Virus record (IMG/VR): IMGVR_UViG_3300020450_000117
Location: 1 to 21,305 of that record
Length of the DNA stretch: 21,305 bases
Strand: one strand, 5' to 3'
DNA from: a virus
Within the stretch, counting starts at the first letter, position 1; every line of letters starts with the position of its first letter. Shown one piece after another: positions 723 through 12,295 of this stretch. Position numbers and translations under genes: made by a program. The notes beneath the pieces are model-generated. The model ran no database searches and was not told the DNA's origin. It saw nothing but the letters and a program-made list of their open reading frames with translations.

Positions 723-2792
723 CTATGCTAAACCTGCGGTGTATTTTGCTGCCACTACTTTGGTAATTCCGCTAACCAATGTGCTAAACCAACTGCTACC
801 GCCACCTGATTGAGATTCAGCATCCATTTCCCCAAGTAACAGACGTACTGCCAATTCTTCCTCTGATTGTGCGCCCTTGAACAAGTAGTCGAGCACTATA
901 TCAACTTCGTTCCATGTACGGTTTAAACCTTCCTGACTGAGGCCCAGAATAGATTTAACATCTGTAGCTGCAGCATCGAAGGTCAGGCCAGTATTCTCGC
1001 TCTCTACGGATCTACGCCATCCTGCATTTGACTCATCGATTAGCCATTGCAGGTTGGTTGTAAACTCTTGCCGCCTGTTTTCTAAAGTGGCATAGAACTC
1101 TTCGAAGTCGTTGATTTCTCCAGAGTTAAACATCTTAATATCGGAGTTAAGCTTTTCCATGAAAGTCTGTGCTTCTAAATCAACTCCTGCATAAAATTTC
1201 TGGAAGTCAGCTTCAGTCTCGAAAACCATCCTATTTCTAAGATTATTCTCTGACGTTTGAGTAAATAGTGCATCCACTTTACTCTTCACATTGATCATTT
1301 CAGCTTGTTGCTCATTAGTCAGATTAGTCATATTCATGTCTAAAAAAGCTTGTGAATTATGTTTAGAAGATCTTTCTATAACACCTAATTCAGCTTCATC
1401 TAAACCTGCCATCGTTGCAGCTTTTTGAATAATTTGTTGTTGTTTGTTACTTAGGTTTGTTGTCGTTAAAGTTTGAAAAAATGCAGCTTCATCTTTTGCT
1501 ACTGACAAACTAGCTTCCATCAAACCTTTAGACAGAATACCCATCTTTTGAGAACCAGTAAGGCCGCTAAATGCCATGTCGGTAGTTATACTTCCATATA
1601 CACCTTGCGCCCAACTTGGTATCTTAGGGTTACCATTATTATCTACAAATTGCTCACTAATCAGATCCATCTGACCTAGTATGGTAGCCTTACTATCTAC
1701 ATAGTTTCCTTCGCCTAAAGCTTCAGCTAGTAGCTTACCATCTACTGTGCTTGTATTAACTACACTACCAAACTTTTGAACGGCATAATCATTAAGAGCT
1801 ACGCCTGTGTAATTAACTGTACCGTCTTCGTTAACACCTGTACCCAAACCTTTTTTATCTAGCCTTAGTTCATCCTTATCTACAAGCATATCGTCAGTGA
1901 CGGTTCCCTCAATCGCCTTGACGTTAAACTTTTCGTTATTGAGGTCACTTAAAGCAGAATCTACAGTTAGGTCATTTAGGGGTTGTTCTGTGGGGATATT
2001 TATTTTTACATCCCCATCGACTGTAGATACCGTAGCCTTGTCCAAATCCCCTAGTGCATACTTTGAGTCATCAGGATTGAGCATTGTACCTAATGCATCA
2101 GGATCAACTTGTATTGTTTTTGCTATTTCGGAAAGATTTGCACCACGGTCTGTTAGGAACTTAGCAGGATTTTTTAGTAACTCCTGCAGGTCTTCTTGGC
2201 TTTTAATAAAACCAGAAGTTTCTAACATTTTTAGAATATTTTCTTGCGATATTTTACTGTCCATAGCCTCGGTAAAGTCATCACCTGCGTTGGCCCCATC
2301 GTTAGTAGTATTTACACCGCTTTGGCTATCATCGCCGCCGCCACCTGAACCATCAGAGTTTGCTTTTACCTTAAAATTATAAGACGCAATATCATCGTCA
2401 TTTAGCCCCAACTCTTTGAGTTCGGCTGTAGTTAGGTTTGGTTTATTATTTGCGAGGCTTGTAATCTTCGTTCTATGATTGAAGTCATCAACTACATCTT
2501 TACCATATTTTTTAACAAATTCGTCTTCACTAAGTGTAAGCTTATCAAAGCCCATTTTCGCATCATTAGCAATACCACTGGCTGCGTTAGTTGCAGTATC
2601 AACAAAATTTGAAACCCCATTAGAAACGCTATTTGTTACTGCATTAAAAGCTGTACCATCATTTCCTACAACAGCGTTGCTATCATCTACTGCCTTACCA
2701 GTATCTTTATTTACTAATTTACCATTGACATATTCGTTATCATCACCTGGAGTAAAGAGATTGGCTAGATTTTGCTGAAATGTGTTAGCCAT
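723..2792 (-). CDS. Large probable virion protein (689 residues), possibly internal or ejected
   Basis: The frame can be extended upstream to a GTG at 2834, but the ATG at 2792 is the better start: it has an AAGGATA ribosome binding site and overlaps the o-spanin stop by 8 bases (ATGGCTAA). The N-terminal third is rich in Asn, Asp, Ser and Thr with a Gly/Asp linker (SGGGGDDSQSG). The C-terminal half is mostly helical, with long Gln/Glu-rich stretches and the element NAGWRRSVESENT, a pattern I recall from marine podovirus and cyanophage structural proteins. The extreme C-terminus holds a short hydrophobic segment (WFSTLVSGITKVVAA). A large helical protein late in the operon fits an internal core or ejection protein like T7 gp15 or gp16. 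No lytic transglycosylase motif is visible, so the assignment stays tentative. Confidence 0.8.
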   Translation of the reverse strand: MANTFQQNLANLFTPGDDNEYVNGKLVNKDTGKAVDDSNAVVGNDGTAFNAVTNSVSNGVSNFVDTATNAASGIANDAKMGFDKLTLSEDEFVKKYGKDVVDDFNHRTKITSLANNKPNLTTAELKELGLNDDDIASYNFKVKANSDGSGGGGDDSQSGVNTTNDGANAGDDFTEAMDSKISQENILKMLETSGFIKSQEDLQELLKNPAKFLTDRGANLSEIAKTIQVDPDALGTMLNPDDSKYALGDLDKATVSTVDGDVKINIPTEQPLNDLTVDSALSDLNNEKFNVKAIEGTVTDDMLVDKDELRLDKKGLGTGVNEDGTVNYTGVALNDYAVQKFGSVVNTSTVDGKLLAEALGEGNYVDSKATILGQMDLISEQFVDNNGNPKIPSWAQGVYGSITTDMAFSGLTGSQKMGILSKGLMEASLSVAKDEAAFFQTLTTTNLSNKQQQIIQKAATMAGLDEAELGVIERSSKHNSQAFLDMNMTNLTNEQQAEMINVKSKVDALFTQTSENNLRNRMVFETEADFQKFYAGVDLEAQTFMEKLNSDIKMFNSGEINDFEEFYATLENRRQEFTTNLQWLIDESNAGWRRSVESENTGLTFDAAATDVKSILGLSQEGLNRTWNEVDIVLDYLFKGAQSEEELAVRLLLGEMDAESQSGGGSSWFSTLVSGITKVVAAKYTAGLA

Positions 2793-3039
2793 CAAGGTTA
2801 TCCTTTTCTTGTTCGCAGCTACGGATACGATCACGCAGTTTTACATAATCAGCTATTGTGTTAGGGATAGCTTGGTAGCCCTCTGGCAGAGCCTCTAACT
2901 CTTGTGCCAGTGCTTCATTATAATCAGTTGAGTATGATTTGAGGGGTGGACAGTAGACTTCTAAATTAGTCCTATAAACCGTCTTTTCGCAGCCTGTCAG
3001 TAATACCGCTGCGAGTATTAAGAGAACCGTCTTCTTCAT
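2785..3039 (-). CDS. Outer-membrane spanin, Rz1/LysC-like lipoprotein
   Basis: The 84-residue product has a short charged N-terminus (MKKT), a hydrophobic core and a lipobox LLTGC with the lipidated cysteine at residue 17, the signature of an outer-membrane lipoprotein. After it come a CPP element (residues 30-32), a Leu/Glu-rich helix and a DYVKLRDRIRSC segment. This order matches Rz1/LysC-type o-spanins, in which a proline element precedes a helix and a C-terminal pair of conserved residues. The start at 3039 lies inside the i-spanin gene in another frame, giving a 68-base overlap, the usual arrangement of an Rz/Rz1 pair. After lysozyme has degraded the wall, the pair is expected to fuse inner and outer membranes. 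It implies a Gram-negative host. Confidence 0.85.
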   Translation of the reverse strand: MKKTVLLILAAVLLTGCEKTVYRTNLEVYCPPLKSYSTDYNEALAQELEALPEGYQAIPNTIADYVKLRDRIRSCEQEKDNLDG

Positions 3040-3217
3040 GTTCAGCCATTGCCTTATAAAAATCTGTAGCCTTTTCTTTGGCTTTTATTTCATCTTTTAA
3101 AATCTTATTTTTCTCTGCGGATTTACCTTTGACCCGACCTACGATGTACAGGATAGGCAGGGCGATAACTAAAGCTGCAATGATTAGGTCTTTGATTTTG
3201 CCAAAGATGCTAAACAT
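2972..3217 (-). CDS. Inner-membrane spanin, Rz-like
   Basis: The 81-residue product has one N-terminal membrane segment (about residues 10-28, LIIAALVIALPILYIVG) followed by a charged Lys/Glu-rich coiled-coil stretch (about 32-60). This is the type II topology of i-spanins. It is shorter than lambda Rz (about 150 residues) and so has a short periplasmic coil. The start at 3217 overlaps the lysozyme stop by 8 bases (ATGTTTAG) and the distal part overlaps the lipoprotein gene. Position and topology together make the spanin call; the sequence alone would not. The C-terminus (ITDRLRKDGL) would contact the o-spanin if the pair works like Rz/Rz1. Confidence 0.8.
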   Translation of the reverse strand: MFSIFGKIKDLIIAALVIALPILYIVGRVKGKSAEKNKILKDEIKAKEKATDFYKAMAEHEEDGSLNTRSGITDRLRKDGL

Positions 3218-5484: not shown

Positions 5485-5946
5485 TTATATTCCTTTCTTG
5501 GTTATAAAACCTATTCTGTTGTATTTTTTCTTTTGCAGAAATTTTTCAAAAGAAGGGCTGTAAGCTCCTGAAGAAGGGGCAATACATATTTCCATTGCTC
5601 CCCAATCTTTTGCCCAAGTTTCAAACTCAGCGATTGCTTTATTTAAAAACTGCAACGTAAATCTTCTATCGTTTGGATTTACATAAATAGCTAAATCAGT
5701 AGCGATACGTTTTTTGCTAAAAAAGTATTCTGATATTTCTCCGCAGAATGCCCCAAGAATTATTCCATCTTGTTCGCCCACCGTCATAAAATATGGTTTA
5801 GTTGGGTCTATACAGTTTAGGATTATCTGGCAAACCTTGTCTTCATCGAAGCCGCAGTCCTTAAATAAACTATTTTTTTGGAAGTCCTTTGCCATTGAGA
5901 CTATGGCAGAAATATCCTCTTTTTGAGGAAATCTCGTTATTATCAT
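5485..5946 (-). CDS. GNAT-fold acetyltransferase-like protein
   Basis: The 153-residue protein has the length and secondary-structure order of a GNAT domain: an N-terminal strand and helix (IITRFPQKEDISAIVSMAKD), a central strand (ATDLAIYVNP, about 82-91), a helix after the cofactor loop (about 96-112), and a late strand pair ending YNRIGF. The acetyl-CoA loop is not canonical: where most members have Arg-x-x-Gly-x-Gly/Ala, this one reads DRRFTLQF, so the glycines are missing. Proteins with a GNAT-like fold next to virion genes are known in T7-like phages, where a structural rather than catalytic role is plausible; this link is inference. A sigma70-like promoter lies just upstream, so the gene may begin its own transcript. 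The ribosome binding site (CAGGAAAA) is rather distant, about 13 bases from the ATG. Confidence 0.7.
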   Translation of the reverse strand: MIITRFPQKEDISAIVSMAKDFQKNSLFKDCGFDEDKVCQIILNCIDPTKPYFMTVGEQDGIILGAFCGEISEYFFSKKRIATDLAIYVNPNDRRFTLQFLNKAIAEFETWAKDWGAMEICIAPSSGAYSPSFEKFLQKKKYNRIGFITKKGI

Positions 5947-6015: not shown

Positions 6016-7200
6016 TCAAAGCAAAATCTGACTTGCCCTGTCAGTAATATTCCAGTTACTAATTCCACTGTCGTAGTAAAAACCTGGGCCACCAACTTGA
6101 TTGTCTAGCGCAACGTGTCTTCCACCTGAGTAGTAATCAAAGTCCGTTGCGAATTGATGTTGTAAATCAGCTACAGGAGTCATATTACTTTTTTGAACTT
6201 TTATCACAAATCGTTTTCCTCCAAAAGGTGGAGTTTGAACGTTAGCCGCAATGTATAAATGATCTTTATCATGGGTCATGCCCATGCAATTTTGAACCTG
6301 CACACTGCCATAAACAGACGATGTGTAGTTAAGAACTGAGGTAGTGTTTTCTGCACCAGTATATTTACTCCATTTTGTAATTCTATTATTTGTACCACAA
6401 GTGTAAACCCAAGCATCATCTACACATATTGATGTTGATGTGCCAGTGTATCCAACACTGCTCGATGAATAATGAACTGGGCTTACAAGACCTGAACCAA
6501 CGCTTGATGATTTACCAATTTTATAAAAATTATCTCTATTATTATATGGACTTGGAAATGCCCCAGTACAATAAACATAATCATTATCAGACGTAATGCA
6601 GAGTAAAGCACTTATATTACTTAAATTAGTATTTCCAACAGTGCCAAAATATTGCCCCCTTTGCAAAGTTCTAATATTACCCGAATTTACACCACCCCCA
6701 AAAAAGACGTAATTTGGGTCTAGAGCTATAGCATACAATTCACCTCCAGTGTAGTATGAATTATTTACATTAGCACCAGTTGTTTTGTTATCTCTATAGA
6801 CATAGCCACTATTATCACACCAATAAACATAATTTGAATCTACAGCGATTGCACTTCTGCTTATATAACGGCTATAAGACGTAAAATTTGTAGCTGGTGC
6901 GTCTTTATTCCACCTAGCAAAAGAAGCACTAGAATACCCGTGGTTTGCCCAAATTTTTGTATCATCTATACCTACATTTTGCATACCAGAACCTGCAGCG
7001 GAAGAATAATAGGCAACTCTTGACATATCTTCGGGAACAAAAACCATTAGCCCTTGTTGACCATTTGAATTTGATCCGACTACATAGCCAAAAACTGGGC
7101 TTTCTTCTCCACTGCCTCGACCAAAACTCCGCAAAGAGCCGCCGCCTAGAGTGCCCATCATGGGTGAATGTGCGACTTGTGGTTTTTCAGGAAAAATCAT
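6016..7200 (-). CDS. Adhesin-like tail protein with predicted seven-bladed beta-propeller
   Basis: The first 25 or so residues (MIFPEKPQVAHSPMMGTLGG then GS) match the start of the glycine-rich protein encoded at 8329-9330, so this is probably a shared attachment segment. After it, a pattern of hydrophobic-x-hydrophobic-Asp-x-x-x-(Tyr/Trp/Leu)-hydrophobic-(Tyr/Phe/Trp) recurs seven times, with the Asp near residues 79, 121, 161, 205, 261, 311 and 366. Examples are IAVDSNYVYWC, IALDPNYVFFG and ICVDDAWVYTC. Repeats 40-56 residues apart, each built from short strands, are what a seven-bladed propeller looks like. No catalytic motif is visible. It closes the second fibre module, so a receptor-binding role is the best inference. 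The ATG has a strong AGGAGA site. The product has 394 residues. Confidence 0.75.
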   Translation of the reverse strand: MIFPEKPQVAHSPMMGTLGGGSLRSFGRGSGEESPVFGYVVGSNSNGQQGLMVFVPEDMSRVAYYSSAAGSGMQNVGIDDTKIWANHGYSSASFARWNKDAPATNFTSYSRYISRSAIAVDSNYVYWCDNSGYVYRDNKTTGANVNNSYYTGGELYAIALDPNYVFFGGGVNSGNIRTLQRGQYFGTVGNTNLSNISALLCITSDNDYVYCTGAFPSPYNNRDNFYKIGKSSSVGSGLVSPVHYSSSSVGYTGTSTSICVDDAWVYTCGTNNRITKWSKYTGAENTTSVLNYTSSVYGSVQVQNCMGMTHDKDHLYIAANVQTPPFGGKRFVIKVQKSNMTPVADLQHQFATDFDYYSGGRHVALDNQVGGPGFYYDSGISNWNITDRASQILL

Positions 7201-7215
7201 TGTGACTATCTCCTA

Positions 7216-8118
7216 TTAAGCGAATGCTGCTACTGAAGCCAAAACTGTGAATGTCGCTGAAGCTGTTTTGATTATGTTGAAGGTATATACATCAATACCA
7301 GAAGCATTCCCTGCAGTGGGTGCGCTACCGCCCTGCCACTTTGGAGTGACTGCATTACCGTCTATTGAGTAGGAGTTTAAGTAGTAGGCTGTTGAACCTT
7401 GGGCCATTAATACGGCTGCACTCATACTTTGTCCTACAGCCAACATATCATCTACATTAACTGAACTATCGCCTTGAAAGTTGATTGCTCTATTAGCAGT
7501 CTGGTTAACGTTACAAAACAAAACTGCTTGTTGAACCATATCCATTGTTAGAGTGCCAGAAGTGGTTGCACTAATAGCAGCCGTTTCAATCACTTCATCT
7601 ATCTGTAGCGTACCGCCTACATCTAGACCTTTGTTTGTAGTCCACTTGTCACCAGTACTGGCGTAGCTGAAGGTAGCCCCTGCACCATCCACTGTCAGAC
7701 CTGCACCGTTTGCAGCCGCTGCATCAGCCGCACCGTCAGCCACAGTAATGTTTAAATCGTCCACTGTCATTGTGGCACTATTGATAACTGTTTGGGTTCC
7801 GTTAACAGTCAAATTCCCAGATAGGGTAAGATCGGCTGCGTTCACTGTACCAGTAAAAGTTGGACTAGCTAGTGTTGCATATCCTGCCCCTGCCGCTTGT
7901 ACTGCCGCAACTTGAGTTGTACCTTCTGTAGTAACTCTAGCTACCTGAGTATCACCTTGGGTAATTACATCAGCGACTGTGCCTGTAATGTTTAAGGCTT
8001 CAAGAGTTTTACCCAAAAACACAAGGTCTTTAGGATTTGTTGTAGATGCAGCTAATGACTGCGCTTTAGTATCAATCGCTGTTATAAGCGAAGAAAAGTT
8101 GTTGTTTACTGTTGGCAT
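7216..8118 (-). CDS. Tail fibre protein, second paralogue (300 residues)
   Basis: The protein has the low-complexity beta-rich composition of a trimeric phage fibre. Shared segments with the 359-residue fibre at 9340-10419 are TQVAAVQAAGA, the block LTVNGTQTxINS followed by VDDLNITVA, NGAGLTVDG with TGDKW, and a C-terminal region with TAYYLN, KW-GG and IDxYxxxIIKTAS. The two genes are therefore paralogues, and this copy lacks the YHGAFVHVH domain. N-terminal residues 1-45 are helical and probably mount the fibre on the tail. It is followed at 15 bases by the propeller protein, just as the other copy is followed by the glycine-rich adhesin. The ATG at 8118 has an AGGGG site near the stop of the 61-residue gene. 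Confidence 0.82.
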   Translation of the reverse strand: MPTVNNNFSSLITAIDTKAQSLAASTTNPKDLVFLGKTLEALNITGTVADVITQGDTQVARVTTEGTTQVAAVQAAGAGYATLASPTFTGTVNAADLTLSGNLTVNGTQTVINSATMTVDDLNITVADGAADAAAANGAGLTVDGAGATFSYASTGDKWTTNKGLDVGGTLQIDEVIETAAISATTSGTLTMDMVQQAVLFCNVNQTANRAINFQGDSSVNVDDMLAVGQSMSAAVLMAQGSTAYYLNSYSIDGNAVTPKWQGGSAPTAGNASGIDVYTFNIIKTASATFTVLASVAAFA

Positions 8119-8121
8119 TTT

Positions 8122-8307
8122 CTAGACCCCTAAATTGAGTAAATTTTCATCTTCAAGAGCCTCGACCTTCAAATTGAGGCTTACATCAGAAGTGTTGTAG
8201 TTTGGTTCGTTTACGTTGAAGTCTGAAGCAGATGCTTCGCCTTGGACTTCGGCAAGGGAGATTTTTGAATCTCTCATTAAGTCGGCTAAAAGCCTCGCTT
8301 TAGACAT
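8122..8307 (-). CDS. Small protein of 61 residues between fibre modules
   Basis: The product starts MSKARLLADLMRDSKISLAE, which resembles the opening residues (SKARxLADL) of many marine-phage tail fibres as I recall them, but it ends after 61 residues with EALEDENLLNLGV. It has an AGGAA ribosome binding site 8 bases before the ATG and stops 3 bases before the next fibre gene, so it looks like a deliberate, coupled gene. It could be a small adaptor or chaperone carrying the fibre-anchor motif, or the remnant of a fibre N-terminus left after module exchange. No other motif is seen. Confidence 0.7.
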   Translation of the reverse strand: MSKARLLADLMRDSKISLAEVQGEASASDFNVNEPNYNTSDVSLNLKVEALEDENLLNLGV

Positions 8308-8328
8308 GAGTGTTTCCTAACAATTTTC

Positions 8329-9330
8329 TTATATGTGTCTATAAACAGTTGCGTTATAGTCTGTGCCTACATCTGTGCTTGGAAAGGCCCTGTTGTCTCC
8401 CCAAACAACCCTTACTGCACCTTGACCACCCCCTCTGTATTGGTTGCCACAACCACCGCCAAATTCGCCGCCAGAGTTAAAGTTGTTAATAGAAGTTCCA
8501 CCAACAGTTACATTTGCGCCATAATTTGAAAACCCATCAGAGCCACGACTACCGCCAGAACCGCCAGAACCTCCAAGTCCACTAAAACTACCAGCGTTTC
8601 CGTTGAAACCGCCGACTCCTCCTGCACCGTTTGATCCTTGACCATATAAGCCAACACCGCCGCCGCCGCCGCCGTAGCCATATCCTACCCCAATTGTGTC
8701 ATAACTAGCACCGCCGCCACCACCAGCACCGCCGCTACCTGCAGTACCATTGAAAAAGCCGTTATGGCCGCCGCTACCGCCATTACCTGCGTAGCCACCT
8801 GCTCCACCGCCGCCAGAACCTATATAAGTTCCTGCACCATTTGTTCCTCTTGTATTGTTGTTGGCTGAACCACCGTTTCCACCGCCATCCCCATTATATT
8901 GACCGCCCTGAGGTACACCTGCTGCTTCTGAACCTTGTCCACCCCCACCATAAACAGTACTAGAGTTTATAAAACTCGAATAATCTCCATTCGAACCGCC
9001 ACCTTCAGAAGCTGCACCAACTCGAACGTCGATTGACTGACCTGGAGTAACAGAAATATTATTTTTATAACCAAGTCCACCACCTGCACCACCGCCGTAG
9101 TTACTTGCACCACCACCGCCGCCTACGCAAACTACACTGACTGAAGTAACTGCCTCAGGGACAATCCAAGTAAATGTATGAGTGACTTGGCTTGAACTGT
9201 CTCTCAGCATAAAAATAGCTTCACCTGCGACTGGGCCACCGCCACTAGACCTAAACCCATTAGCAGACCCACCGCCAAAAGTTGCTAACATGGGGGCGTA
9301 TAATATTTCAGGTTTTTTTGGCAGTATCAT
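8329..9330 (-). CDS. Glycine-rich tail-tip adhesin
   Basis: The start (MILPKKPEILYAPMLATF then GGGS) forms the same N-terminal segment as in the propeller protein. Residues about 49-105 form a strand-rich domain (HTFTWIVPEAVTSVSVVCVG, then SVTPGQSIDVRVG). A long stretch, about 105-300, is dominated by runs of glycine broken by Ser, Asn and Tyr. The end carries GAVRVVWG and RAFPST, elements I recall from glycine-rich proteins of many marine phages. Long glycine-rich regions in phage tail tips are known from T4-like gp38 adhesins, where polyglycine helices pack side by side and loops touch the receptor; whether this protein folds the same way is inference. The DNA is visibly richer in GCC/ACC triplets than its neighbours because of the glycine codons. 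The start has a GGAG site. Confidence 0.85.
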   Translation of the reverse strand: MILPKKPEILYAPMLATFGGGSANGFRSSGGGPVAGEAIFMLRDSSSQVTHTFTWIVPEAVTSVSVVCVGGGGGASNYGGGAGGGLGYKNNISVTPGQSIDVRVGAASEGGGSNGDYSSFINSSTVYGGGGQGSEAAGVPQGGQYNGDGGGNGGSANNNTRGTNGAGTYIGSGGGGAGGYAGNGGSGGHNGFFNGTAGSGGAGGGGGASYDTIGVGYGYGGGGGGVGLYGQGSNGAGGVGGFNGNAGSFSGLGGSGGSGGSRGSDGFSNYGANVTVGGTSINNFNSGGEFGGGCGNQYRGGGQGAVRVVWGDNRAFPSTDVGTDYNATVYRHI

Positions 9331-9339
9331 TCCAAACTC

Positions 9340-10419
9340 CTATTCGTATTTTGTTTGACTTGCCAAACATGTAAATGTTCCAGAGGCAGTTTTAATAATG
9401 GTAATTGAGTAAGCATCTATGGAGTTTGCATTGCCGCCTGTTGGAGCGCCTCCGACCCACTTAGTAGTGACGTTAGCAGTTGTTCCATCAACTTGTATTT
9501 GATTTAGATAATAAGCCGTTCCACCTTGCGTATAAATAAGTGCAGCGGTTACTGAATCATTAACTGATAAAAGCGAGTCCAAAGTGGTACTGCCATCACC
9601 TATAAAATTTACTTGGGCATTTTGAGCTTGGTTATTAATAAAATAAACAATAGCGGTTCCATCTTTCATCTGAATGTTGGTTGTTCCACCAGTGCCTGTG
9701 TCAGTCCATGCTCTTTCCCGAATAGTAGAGAACTTTGAGATTTCTGTGTGAGCATTTAACTGACCAGATAGGCTTACAGAGCCAGTTACATCCAGTGGTT
9801 TATTCATCGTCCACTTATCGCCAGTATTGGCATAGTTAAATGTGGCTGAAGCTCCGTCCACCGTTAGTCCTGCGCCATTTGCAGCGGCTGCGTTTGCTGC
9901 GCCTTTTGCAACTGTAATATTAAGGTCATCAACATCTAACGTAGTAGAGTTGATAGTAGTCTGAGTTCCGTTAACCGTAAGTGATCCGTCTATGACAACA
10001 TCACCATTGGCGTCAGAATTAACTAGAGGTATCCAGTTCCCTCCATGCGCATAATACGCCTTTTGAGTCGCATGCACATGCACAAAAGCGCCATGATAGG
10101 TTGAGGCTGATGGAAGGTCTGCTAGTTGTGAGTAAACATTGGAATACAACACCTTACCAGTAGTGGTGATATTGTTTGAACCCATGTCTATGTCACCAGT
10201 AAATGTAGCACCAGATAACTGAGCATAGTTTGCCCCTGCAGCTTGTACTGCCGCTACTTGGGTAGCGCCCTCATTCTGAATGCTAGTTACTGTTACTGAT
10301 GGTTGTAATGCTTCAACGGCTTTACCTAAGAGCAAAAACTCTTTTGCGTCCGTTGTGCCACTTGTATTATTTAATTTAGTGGTAAGGTTGCTCTCAACCG
10401 TTGTTGTATTAATTGCCAT
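9340..10419 (-). CDS. Tail fibre protein, first paralogue (359 residues)
   Basis: This fibre shares its repeats and C-terminal domain with the 300-residue fibre at 7216-8118, and shares a TGDIDMGSxxITT element with the long fibre at 10421-12295. Between the DIDMGS element and the LTVNGTQ block it has an extra segment of about 60 residues including SQLADLPSASTYHGAFVHVH and YYAHGGNWIPL. I recall this as a common insert in marine-phage fibres, possibly a small carbohydrate- or protein-binding domain. The N-terminal 45 residues (LLLGKAVEALQ) are helical. It starts one base after the long-fibre stop and ends 9 bases before the glycine-rich adhesin gene, so fibre and adhesin are probably made together. 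Confidence 0.85.
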   Translation of the reverse strand: MAINTTTVESNLTTKLNNTSGTTDAKEFLLLGKAVEALQPSVTVTSIQNEGATQVAAVQAAGANYAQLSGATFTGDIDMGSNNITTTGKVLYSNVYSQLADLPSASTYHGAFVHVHATQKAYYAHGGNWIPLVNSDANGDVVIDGSLTVNGTQTTINSTTLDVDDLNITVAKGAANAAAANGAGLTVDGASATFNYANTGDKWTMNKPLDVTGSVSLSGQLNAHTEISKFSTIRERAWTDTGTGGTTNIQMKDGTAIVYFINNQAQNAQVNFIGDGSTTLDSLLSVNDSVTAALIYTQGGTAYYLNQIQVDGTTANVTTKWVGGAPTGGNANSIDAYSITIIKTASGTFTCLASQTKYE

Positions 10420-10420
10420 T

Positions 10421-12295
10421 TTAAATTCCTGCCAATGCTAGAGTTTCCACATCATCGATGAACGCATCGACCTGTGTTTTGTTGTAGTGGTCTGCCAAGG
10501 AGAAGGTTCCGAAGGAGACAATCGAAATTGAATCCCCTGTAGCCGCTGCAGAGGCCAAGACCACATTGGCTCCATCTGTTGCGGTGAAATCTGAAGGTGC
10601 TAATTTTATTCCGTTTAAATAGACATCACAAAAAGTTGGATCGTATACTGCAGGGAACGTAGTTAGTGACCCACTGGTATAGCTTCCTGAGTTAGTTCCA
10701 ACAGTGTAATCTTTACGTTCAGCCGTTCCGTTTACAGAGCTACCTGCGCTTTGAAACCCACCTGATCCAAAAACTTTCATCTGATTTGCGGTTGTGTCGA
10801 ACCATAAATCTCCTAGCGTTACATTTGCGCCTGTTGGAGCATTTGCTGATACAAAGTAAGTATCTAGAAACTGTTGTGATGAAGCGATTGCTGATTGGGC
10901 TGTAGTCGCATGACCTGCCGCTGCATTTTCACTTGCAAGGGCCGCTGCAGCACTGTTAGCACTTGCCGTAGCAGAAGTTGCGGCTGAAGTTGCTGATCCA
11001 AGAATACTGTCTGCGTAGGCTTTGTTTGCAACCTGATCATTAGCAGTTGGGTTTGGAACACCACTAATCGTATTGTTGCCCATAGCAATAGCACCTGCCA
11101 TAGTGCCGCCAGTAAGGGGTAGCCTCAGAGAGTCTTGGGTATCTACATAAGTTTTGTTTGTGAGGTCTGCAACATTAACAGGTGTGTAGGTAGTCGTTAT
11201 TTTCTGACTACCCATATCAATATCACCTGTCATAGTACCACCTGCCAGAGGTAGTTTAGCTGCTATGCTATTAGTAACATTAGTGGAAAAGTTTGCATCA
11301 TCGCCTAATGCAGCCGCTAGTTCGTTTAGTGTATCTAATGCTGCAGGGGCAGAAGCTACGAGGTTTGATACTTCGGAATCTACATACGACTTAGAAGCAG
11401 CATCATTTGGATTAGTTGGGGTAGTAAGGTTTGTTATTGTGCCTGTCGTACCTGCATCCATATTAAGAGTGCCGTTGATGGTCACATCATTAAATGTAGA
11501 TGATCCTGTAGACGCTGTTACGTTACCAGTGATCCCACCAGTAAGATTACCTGTAAGCGTTCCGTTGATTGCTAAGTTATTAAAAGTAGATGTACCCGAA
11601 GATGCCGTTACATTACCTGCTACGTCACCAGTAAGGTCACCAGTGAAACCACCAGATGCAGAGACTGTTGTACCTGCTATAGAGGTTGGATTTGTAGAGC
11701 CAATTACGACACCGTTTATTGAGCCGTTGTTTCCTGCACCACCTACAGTTACTGAGCCTAAAGTAGAGGTGGTAGAGTTTAGAGAAGCTAGGGTGCTAAG
11801 ACCTGTAACTCCTAGAGTGCCACCTATGAGTGCGTTACCTGCAAGGTGTAGGTCTTTGTAATTTAAGCTAGAGGAACCAATGTCTACTGTGTTGGTTGTA
11901 GCAGGGGTTATAGTATTTGAGGCTACCGCCACAAACTCATGCCATACCGCTGCCGAAGCTGTATTTACCGCACAAACAAAAAAGCGGTTTGTAGAAGTAT
12001 TGAGCCATATATTACCAGGAGCATATCCTGCATTGACATCGTCTGTAATAGTTGGATTTGAAGTTGCTTGAGTGTTGTTTTGACCGCCTGTTCCACCATT
12101 CGCAGGGAGTAGATAGCCAGAAACAGATGTTTGTAAATTAATCTTTGGAGAATTTCCTGTAGTACCGTCATGTGAATGCCCTGTTGTTCCAGAAAAAGCA
12201 CTTTCGATCTGGTTAAACTCTGCAATTAACGGGGGTGCAGTTACCTCTGCCCCATTGATAATATCAGGTGCGGATTGTCTTGTATAACCTGCCAT
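10421..12295 (-). CDS. Long tail fibre (624 residues)
   Basis: The N-terminus (MAGYTRQSAPDIINGAEVTA, then EFNQIESAF and GHSHDGTTG) is a fibre-type N-terminal segment of the kind I recall from podovirus fibres, so it probably docks on the tail hub. The shaft contains internal repeats: GNVTASSGTSTFNN at 227 and GNVTASTGSSTFND at 256; LPLAGGTMTGDIDMG at 348 and LPLTGGTMAGAIAMG at 392; and SKSYVDS, NKTYVDT, NKAYADS at 301, 380 and 424. Residues about 433-475 are an Ala/Ser-rich coiled coil. The C-terminal domain (about 480-624) has LGDLWFDTTANQMKVFG and FCDVYLNGIKLAPSDF. It follows the tail nozzle-like gene by three bases and is the first of three related fibre genes. Confidence 0.88.
   Translation of the reverse strand: MAGYTRQSAPDIINGAEVTAPPLIAEFNQIESAFSGTTGHSHDGTTGNSPKINLQTSVSGYLLPANGGTGGQNNTQATSNPTITDDVNAGYAPGNIWLNTSTNRFFVCAVNTASAAVWHEFVAVASNTITPATTNTVDIGSSSLNYKDLHLAGNALIGGTLGVTGLSTLASLNSTTSTLGSVTVGGAGNNGSINGVVIGSTNPTSIAGTTVSASGGFTGDLTGDVAGNVTASSGTSTFNNLAINGTLTGNLTGGITGNVTASTGSSTFNDVTINGTLNMDAGTTGTITNLTTPTNPNDAASKSYVDSEVSNLVASAPAALDTLNELAAALGDDANFSTNVTNSIAAKLPLAGGTMTGDIDMGSQKITTTYTPVNVADLTNKTYVDTQDSLRLPLTGGTMAGAIAMGNNTISGVPNPTANDQVANKAYADSILGSATSAATSATASANSAAAALASENAAAGHATTAQSAIASSQQFLDTYFVSANAPTGANVTLGDLWFDTTANQMKVFGSGGFQSAGSSVNGTAERKDYTVGTNSGSYTSGSLTTFPAVYDPTFCDVYLNGIKLAPSDFTATDGANVVLASAAATGDSISIVSFGTFSLADHYNKTQVDAFIDDVETLALAGI

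What the first reader, a model, noticed from the sequence alone, without database searches (positions are those of the whole stretch)
6016..10419. Two parallel fibre-plus-adhesin modules made by duplication and divergence
The gene pairs 9340-10419/8329-9330 and 7216-8118/6016-7200 have the same layout: a fibre followed closely by an adhesin-like protein. The fibres are clear paralogues (shared LTVNGTQ, VDDLNITVA, NGAGLTVDG, TGDKW and C-terminal IIKTAS regions) and the adhesins share their N-terminus. The phage may display two different tip proteins on related fibres, either on the same particle or as a host-range reserve. I inferred duplication from protein similarity. The fibres differ by an insert of about 60 residues and the adhesin bodies are unrelated.
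Basis: partly seen in the sequence, partly recalled or inferred. Interest (0 to 1): 0.7.

Follow-up and report, generated by a model that had tools for sequence, protein, structure and literature searches.

The report
Two-fibre phage with swappable adhesin tips
This marine virus of bacteria carries two related tail-fibre slots, each with its own mounting piece and an exchangeable receptor-binding tip plugged onto the end, and the same connector parts turn up in otherwise unrelated aquatic viruses.

Summary
The two fibres are paralogues (52% identity over 220 aa, E=4e-54), including regions outside the common shaft. The two adhesins share only about 31-41 N-terminal residues; their bodies are unrelated. 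The phage is an HMO-2011-type podovirus, nearest to Roseobacter phages CRP-235 and CRP-738.

Comparison with 220 fetched loci shows a larger design. There are two slots, each built as anchor, fibre, adhesin. Slot 1 hangs on the C-terminus of the upstream tail fibre. Slot 2 hangs on an overlooked 61-aa gene (8122-8307), whose N-terminus resembles that of full-length fibres in relatives. Three junctions co-vary: anchor end with fibre N-terminus (65/65), fibre C-terminal "dock" with adhesin N-terminal "plug" (83/90 next genes versus 12/939 controls), and a second, different dock/plug pair (10/10). Adhesin bodies are swapped between slots and plug types. Two relatives have chimeric slot-1 fibres carrying slot-2 ends. 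The cassette also occurs in unrelated phage backbones.

So the slots are anciently duplicated, but the tips were exchanged rather than diverged. Both fibres are most likely displayed on the same particle. It works like the T-even gp37/gp38 adhesin, but dock and plug match no solved structure by sequence. Physical binding is not shown.

The parts
10421..12295 (-). Trunk tail fibre; its last residues (...DDVETLALAGI, about 10424-10468) are the slot-1 anchor
   Evidence: Ends in LxLAG[ILMV] in 40/40 loci where the next gene has the slot-1 fibre N-terminus. CRP-738 lacks both this end and F1.
9340..10419 (-). Fibre F1 (slot 1): anchor-binding N-terminus 10234-10419, insert about 10003-10179, shared shaft 9775-10002, C-terminal dock 9343-9735
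   Evidence: phrog_5906 matches the C-terminus E=9e-17
8329..9330 (-). Adhesin A1: plug 9223-9330 plus glycine-rich body
   Evidence: Gly_rich_2 PF21722 E=3.5e-7; phrog_4474 E=1e-36; plug match to A2
8122..8307 (-). M61, stand-alone 61-aa anchor of slot 2: constant N-terminus MSKARLLADL, partner-specific C-terminus LEDENLLNLGV
   Evidence: Precedes slot-2 fibres in 25/25 loci. N-terminus resembles that of CRP-212 gp31 (E=0.0013) and CRP-235 gp33 (0.015). The C-terminus differs where the partner differs (L087, L088).
7216..8118 (-). Fibre F2 (slot 2): anchor-binding N-terminus 7921-8118, shared shaft 7609-7839, C-terminal dock 7219-7608
   Evidence: phrog_5906 E=5e-22
6016..7200 (-). Adhesin A2: plug 7093-7200 plus body predicted as a beta-propeller
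   Evidence: Plug match; body 38% identical to the L006 slot-2 adhesin; model (mean pLDDT 52, pTM 0.65) matches beta-propellers, best E=3e-8
5485..5946 (-). Flanking acyl/acetyltransferase-like gene at the cassette's downstream border; not claimed as part of the fibre
   Evidence: phrog_1249 acetyltransferase E=7e-11; position often conserved

Best explanation
This is a two-slot, three-part adhesion apparatus. In each slot a fibre N-terminus binds the short C-terminal peptide of an anchor: the trunk fibre ...LALAGI for slot 1, the 61-aa protein ...LLNLGV for slot 2. The fibre's C-terminal dock domain carries an adhesin held by its N-terminal plug (MIxPKKPxxLYAPMLxTxGGGSxRGF). The adhesin body, glycine-rich in A1 and a probable propeller in A2, contacts the host. 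The two slots arose by an old duplication of the fibre. Since then recombination within the shared shaft and plug has moved docks, plugs and bodies between slots and between phages. Both fibres are made from one gene block and are probably displayed together on one particle, giving two receptor specificities. Shown: homology, gene order, co-variation of the junctions, chimeras and body swapping. Inferred: physical binding at each junction, trimeric fibres, virion display and host binding.
For: Dock to plug: in loci fetched by the fibre or dock alone, 83/90 following genes start with the plug versus 12/939 control ORFs, cross-validated by locus; the held-out test on all loci gives 74/77 versus 15/719. 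An alternative fibre end (...ASGYTV) is always followed by a different plug (MSLPxxFFIG), 10/10 both ways. Anchor to fibre: 40/40 slot-1 and 25/25 slot-2. Slot identity lies in the fibre N-terminus: nearest neighbour in the same slot 34/34, 87% versus 41% identity, while docks are almost mixed, 60% versus 56%. Chimeric slot-1 fibres with slot-2 dock and plug in L066 and L110. The same body occurs on different slots or plugs: L004 slot 2 and L003 slot 1 57%/193 aa; L137 alpha and L120 beta 66%/441 aa. Slots vary independently. The same cassette lies in backbones whose portal, terminase or capsid have no detectable similarity to the window's. In cultured S-SCSM1 a dock-bearing fibre (gene 225) and the next, plug-bearing protein (gene 226) are both noted as virion proteins; the paper reports mass spectrometry of its virions (PMC9602691).
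Against: No binding, structure or virion data exist for this phage. AlphaFold gave a confident dock (pLDDT about 90) but no placement for the plug (pLDDT below 50) in a single chain, so the interface is not modelled. Dock and plug distances correlate within slot 2 (r=0.64) but not significantly within slot 1 (r=0.15, p=0.12). Several cultured cyanomyophages have the dock followed by a gene whose N-terminus does not score as a plug. The S-SCSM1 plug match is weak (10.7 bits), and that its 'virion protein' notes mean mass-spectrometry detection is my reading.
Confidence: 0.75

Rival explanations
1. The proteins after the fibres are assembly chaperones, like T4 gp38 or V22 gp27, which help the fibre fold and are not on the particle.
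For: Chaperones are often encoded directly after the fibre. V22 gp27 is such a case in a marine phage and does not stay on the fibre (PMC7289586).
Against: Bodies are large (about 210-500 aa and more) and unrelated from phage to phage while the plug is constant. A chaperone would be expected to conserve its fibre-handling part. S-SCSM1 gene 226 carries a virion-protein note. A1 has a glycine-rich domain, a body type known in adhesins such as S16 gp38 (PMC6851490).
Confidence: 0.12
2. Only one module is displayed at a time; the second is a host-range reserve.
For: The two adhesins are different and nothing here shows joint display.
Against: Single packed gene block, no sequence switch, separate conserved anchors for the two slots, and a second slot in nearly all relatives.
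Confidence: 0.1
3. The two pairs were acquired independently from a common pool of dock/plug fibres rather than duplicated in place.
For: Distal parts are clearly exchanged.
Against: The anchor-binding N-termini of F1 and F2 are themselves homologous (42%, E=9e-9) and occur together as ordered slots in several backbones.
Confidence: 0.25

Closest known systems
T-even/S16-type gp37 fibre with gp38 tip adhesin
   Same: Fibre gene directly followed by an adhesin gene; constant N-terminal attachment part and variable body; glycine-rich body in A1; exchange of adhesin specificity by recombination is reported for T-even phages (Tetart 1998, cited in PMC7468147).
   Different: No match of A1 or the dock to S16 gp37/gp38 by sequence. 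S16 gp38 attaches by helices with conserved tryptophans (PMC6851490); this plug has no conserved tryptophan. Bodies vary in fold, and there are two slots with separate anchors.
Branched receptor-binding complexes with several tail spikes (Ackermannviridae)
   Same: Several receptor-binding proteins on one particle, with conserved N-terminal domains that allow exchange (PMC11414711).
   Different: There whole tail spikes are exchanged; here a separate 61-aa anchor and a separate tip protein are used.
Roseobacter phage CRP-738 (cultured HMO-2011-type relative)
   Same: Has the 61-aa anchor, slot-2 fibre (67% identical) and plug-bearing adhesin.
   Different: Slot 1 is an unrelated 1132-aa single chain and the trunk lacks the LALAGI end.
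Metaviromic islands of marine phages
   Same: Hypervariable host-recognition genes, including ones annotated as tail fibre adhesin Gp38 (PMC3909814).
   Different: In the passages read, that work does not describe the two slots, the anchor or the dock/plug pairing.

Membership tests
T-even/S16 gp38 adhesin family | Gene directly downstream of the fibre gene it caps | tested here: met
   Gaps of 9 and 15 nt
T-even/S16 gp38 adhesin family | Sequence homology of the adhesin or its attachment domain to gp38 | tested here: not met
   No phage adhesin among PDB sequence matches of A1 or A2
T-even/S16 gp38 adhesin family | Helical attachment domain with conserved tryptophans entering pockets of the fibre trimer | tested here: not met
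   Plug alignment has no conserved tryptophan; feature from PMC6851490
T-even/S16 gp38 adhesin family | Polyglycine-II sandwich body | tested here: inconclusive
   A1 is glycine-rich, PF21722; fold not predicted. A2 is not glycine-rich and models as a propeller
T-even/S16 gp38 adhesin family | Present on the mature virion at the fibre tip | not testable with these tools
   Only indirect support from a distant relative in S-SCSM1
HMO-2011-type podovirus | Portal and tail genes homologous and in the same order | tested here: met
   Portal 79% identical to CRP-235 and 56% to HMO-2011; tail gene order shared with CRP-738
Dock/plug fibre-adhesin pair described here | Dock at the fibre C-terminus followed by a plug-bearing gene | tested here: met
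   Both window pairs

The most novel reading that the evidence does not exclude
Aquatic phages share a set of connector types (anchor peptide with fibre N-terminus, and at least two dock/plug types) that lets unrelated phage lineages exchange whole two-fibre cassettes, single fibres or single adhesin tips; the 61-aa protein is a free-standing anchor related to the N-terminus of full-length fibres.
Probability: 0.6. Interest if true: 0.72.

Novelty: new variant of a known kind. Interest (0 to 1): 0.6.

Why it matters
Host recognition genes of abundant marine phages are mostly unannotated. A short plug at the start of a gene following a dock-bearing fibre would identify the receptor-binding tip in very many aquatic phage genomes, whatever its body, and would explain how such phages change specificity without rebuilding the fibre. 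The two-slot design makes the question of dual receptor use testable in cultured relatives such as CRP-738.

Tried and rejected
Searching viral contigs with the A2 body found no relative, and tblastn of A1 and A2 against cultured phages found none. A scan with the A1 body failed because of a wrong frame and was not repeated. The dock model has no significant PDB match; the two best are T4 gp10 and gp9 at E=0.2, not used as evidence. A phase switch was considered and rejected: no convincing inverted repeats. The Pfam TOBE_2 match in F2 (E=8e-4, below the curated cut-off) was dismissed as chance.

Full report
Observation. The four ORFs are at the given coordinates, complete and on the - strand. 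F1 and F2 are paralogues: 52% identity over 220 aa, E=4e-54. The match extends beyond the common shaft: N-terminus E=9e-9, shaft E=5e-28, C-terminal domain E=4e-32. A1 and A2 share only their N-terminus (41 aa, E=1e-7); their bodies do not match (E=0.7).

Setting. The window is a virus record of 21.3 kb, shorter than the 53-55 kb genomes of its relatives, so probably a fragment. Its portal is 79% identical to Roseobacter phage CRP-235, 76% to CRP-738, and 56% to the SAR116 phage HMO-2011. The gene order trunk, F1, A1, M61, F2, A2 is packed, with gaps of 1, 9, 21, 3 and 15 nt.

Two slots. Relatives from IMG/VR show the same order with different adhesins. Slot 1 lies between the trunk and a 61-aa gene (M61); slot 2 lies after M61. 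Each slot is found in one of several states: dock fibre plus plug adhesin (type alpha); a fibre ending ASGYTV plus an adhesin starting MSLPxxFFIG (type beta); or one long chain with no separate tip. Combinations seen with both slots resolved (slot 1/slot 2, redundant loci merged by eye): alpha/alpha 6 including the window, alpha/long 5, beta/alpha 5, beta/long 2, long/alpha 2. There is no sign that the state of one slot fixes the other (Fisher p=0.64 on the alpha/beta subset). Single-chain replacements such as CRP-738 gp33 also occur.

Anchor junction. Every slot-1-like fibre N-terminus with a readable preceding gene follows a gene ending LxLAG[ILMV] (40/40), and every slot-2 fibre follows a short gene ending LxLG[VI] (25/25). 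M61's first 31 residues resemble the start of the full-length fibres CRP-212 gp31 and CRP-235 gp33 (E=0.0013 and 0.015). Slot-1 loci lacking M61 carry in its place a gene with the same kind of start: a 1193-aa open chain in L104, 619 aa in L110, 160 aa in L137 and 106 aa in L102. In L087 and L095 the M61 start is kept but its end is different; in L087 and L088 the next gene is an unrelated protein. This fits an anchor whose N-terminus faces the virion and whose C-terminus fits the partner.

Dock/plug junction. In 90 pairs from loci fetched by the fibre or dock alone, 83 following genes start with the plug against 12 of 939 control ORFs, by cross-validation over loci. A held-out test on all loci gives 74/77 against 15/719. 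Caveats: related sequences may sit in both halves, and the control set includes spurious ORFs; the effect is too large for either to explain it. The beta pair is exclusive in both directions, 10/10.

Exchange. Slot identity lies mainly in the fibre N-terminus (34/34 nearest neighbours in the same slot, 87% versus 41% identity). Docks are nearly mixed on average (60% versus 56%). In L066 the slot-1 fibre gene starts as slot 1 and continues at 70-87% DNA identity as slot 2 through dock and plug, followed by the start of an adhesin body 88% identical to L003 slot 1; L110 is a second such chimera. The same adhesin body occurs on different slots and plug types. The cassette also sits in loci whose portal, terminase or capsid show no detectable similarity to the window's (E of 2.7, 0.23 and 0.058).

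How it works. The best reading is a two-fibre apparatus with exchangeable tips. Homology, co-variation and exchange are shown; binding, trimerisation and joint display are inferred. Support for virion display comes from cyanophage S-SCSM1, where the dock-bearing fibre and the next protein, with a weak plug match (10.7 bits), are both noted as virion proteins in a record whose paper reports virion mass spectrometry. A1's body is glycine-rich. A2's body models at low confidence as a beta-propeller (mean pLDDT 52, pTM 0.65; 923 PDB matches at E<=0.001; the leading ones are beta-propellers). The dock folds confidently as a beta-rich domain with relatives among predicted phage proteins in BFVD (E down to 2e-18) but no significant PDB match.

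Novelty. Fibre-tip adhesins and swapping of their specificity are known from T-even phages, and variable host-recognition genes of marine phages are known (PMC3909814). I found no account of the dock/plug family, its second type, the stand-alone anchor or the two-slot cassette in the papers searched; that search covers open-licence papers only. Filed as a new variant of a known kind: it works like gp37/gp38 but fails the sequence and attachment-domain tests for membership.

Noticed in passing
window 5485-5946, and same position in L006, L066, L001, L060, L062: The gene just after A2 is an acetyltransferase-like protein in the window (phrog_1249) but a different 140-151 aa protein in many relatives, annotated as (toxin-activating lysine) acyltransferase in CRP-235 and CRP-738. 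Two families seem to alternate at one position; they may modify fibres or adhesins.
   Followed up: partly
window 2785-3039 and 2972-3217: Two overlapping small ORFs downstream of the lysozyme gene, one with an N-terminal membrane segment and one with a lipoprotein-like signal, look like an i-spanin/o-spanin pair.
   Followed up: no
L060 8616-8658 (CRP-738 gp30): The annotated start of gp30 is 42 nt downstream of an in-frame ATG; the annotation cuts off part of the plug region.
   Followed up: partly
L222 3240-5385 (P-SSM7) and L226 2578-4755 (S-CAM22): These cyanomyophages have two dock-like proteins in tandem followed by a single adhesin-like gene.
   Followed up: partly
L102 4383-5954, L137 9447-11162: A third kind of slot-2 arrangement: an anchor ending ...SYASTLAFGDY followed by a protein starting MADTLE. 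Possibly another anchor/partner connector type.
   Followed up: no
L140 3376-8807: Another backbone with a type-beta module (after a 188-aa gene ending IALAGL) and a type-alpha module close by.
   Followed up: no
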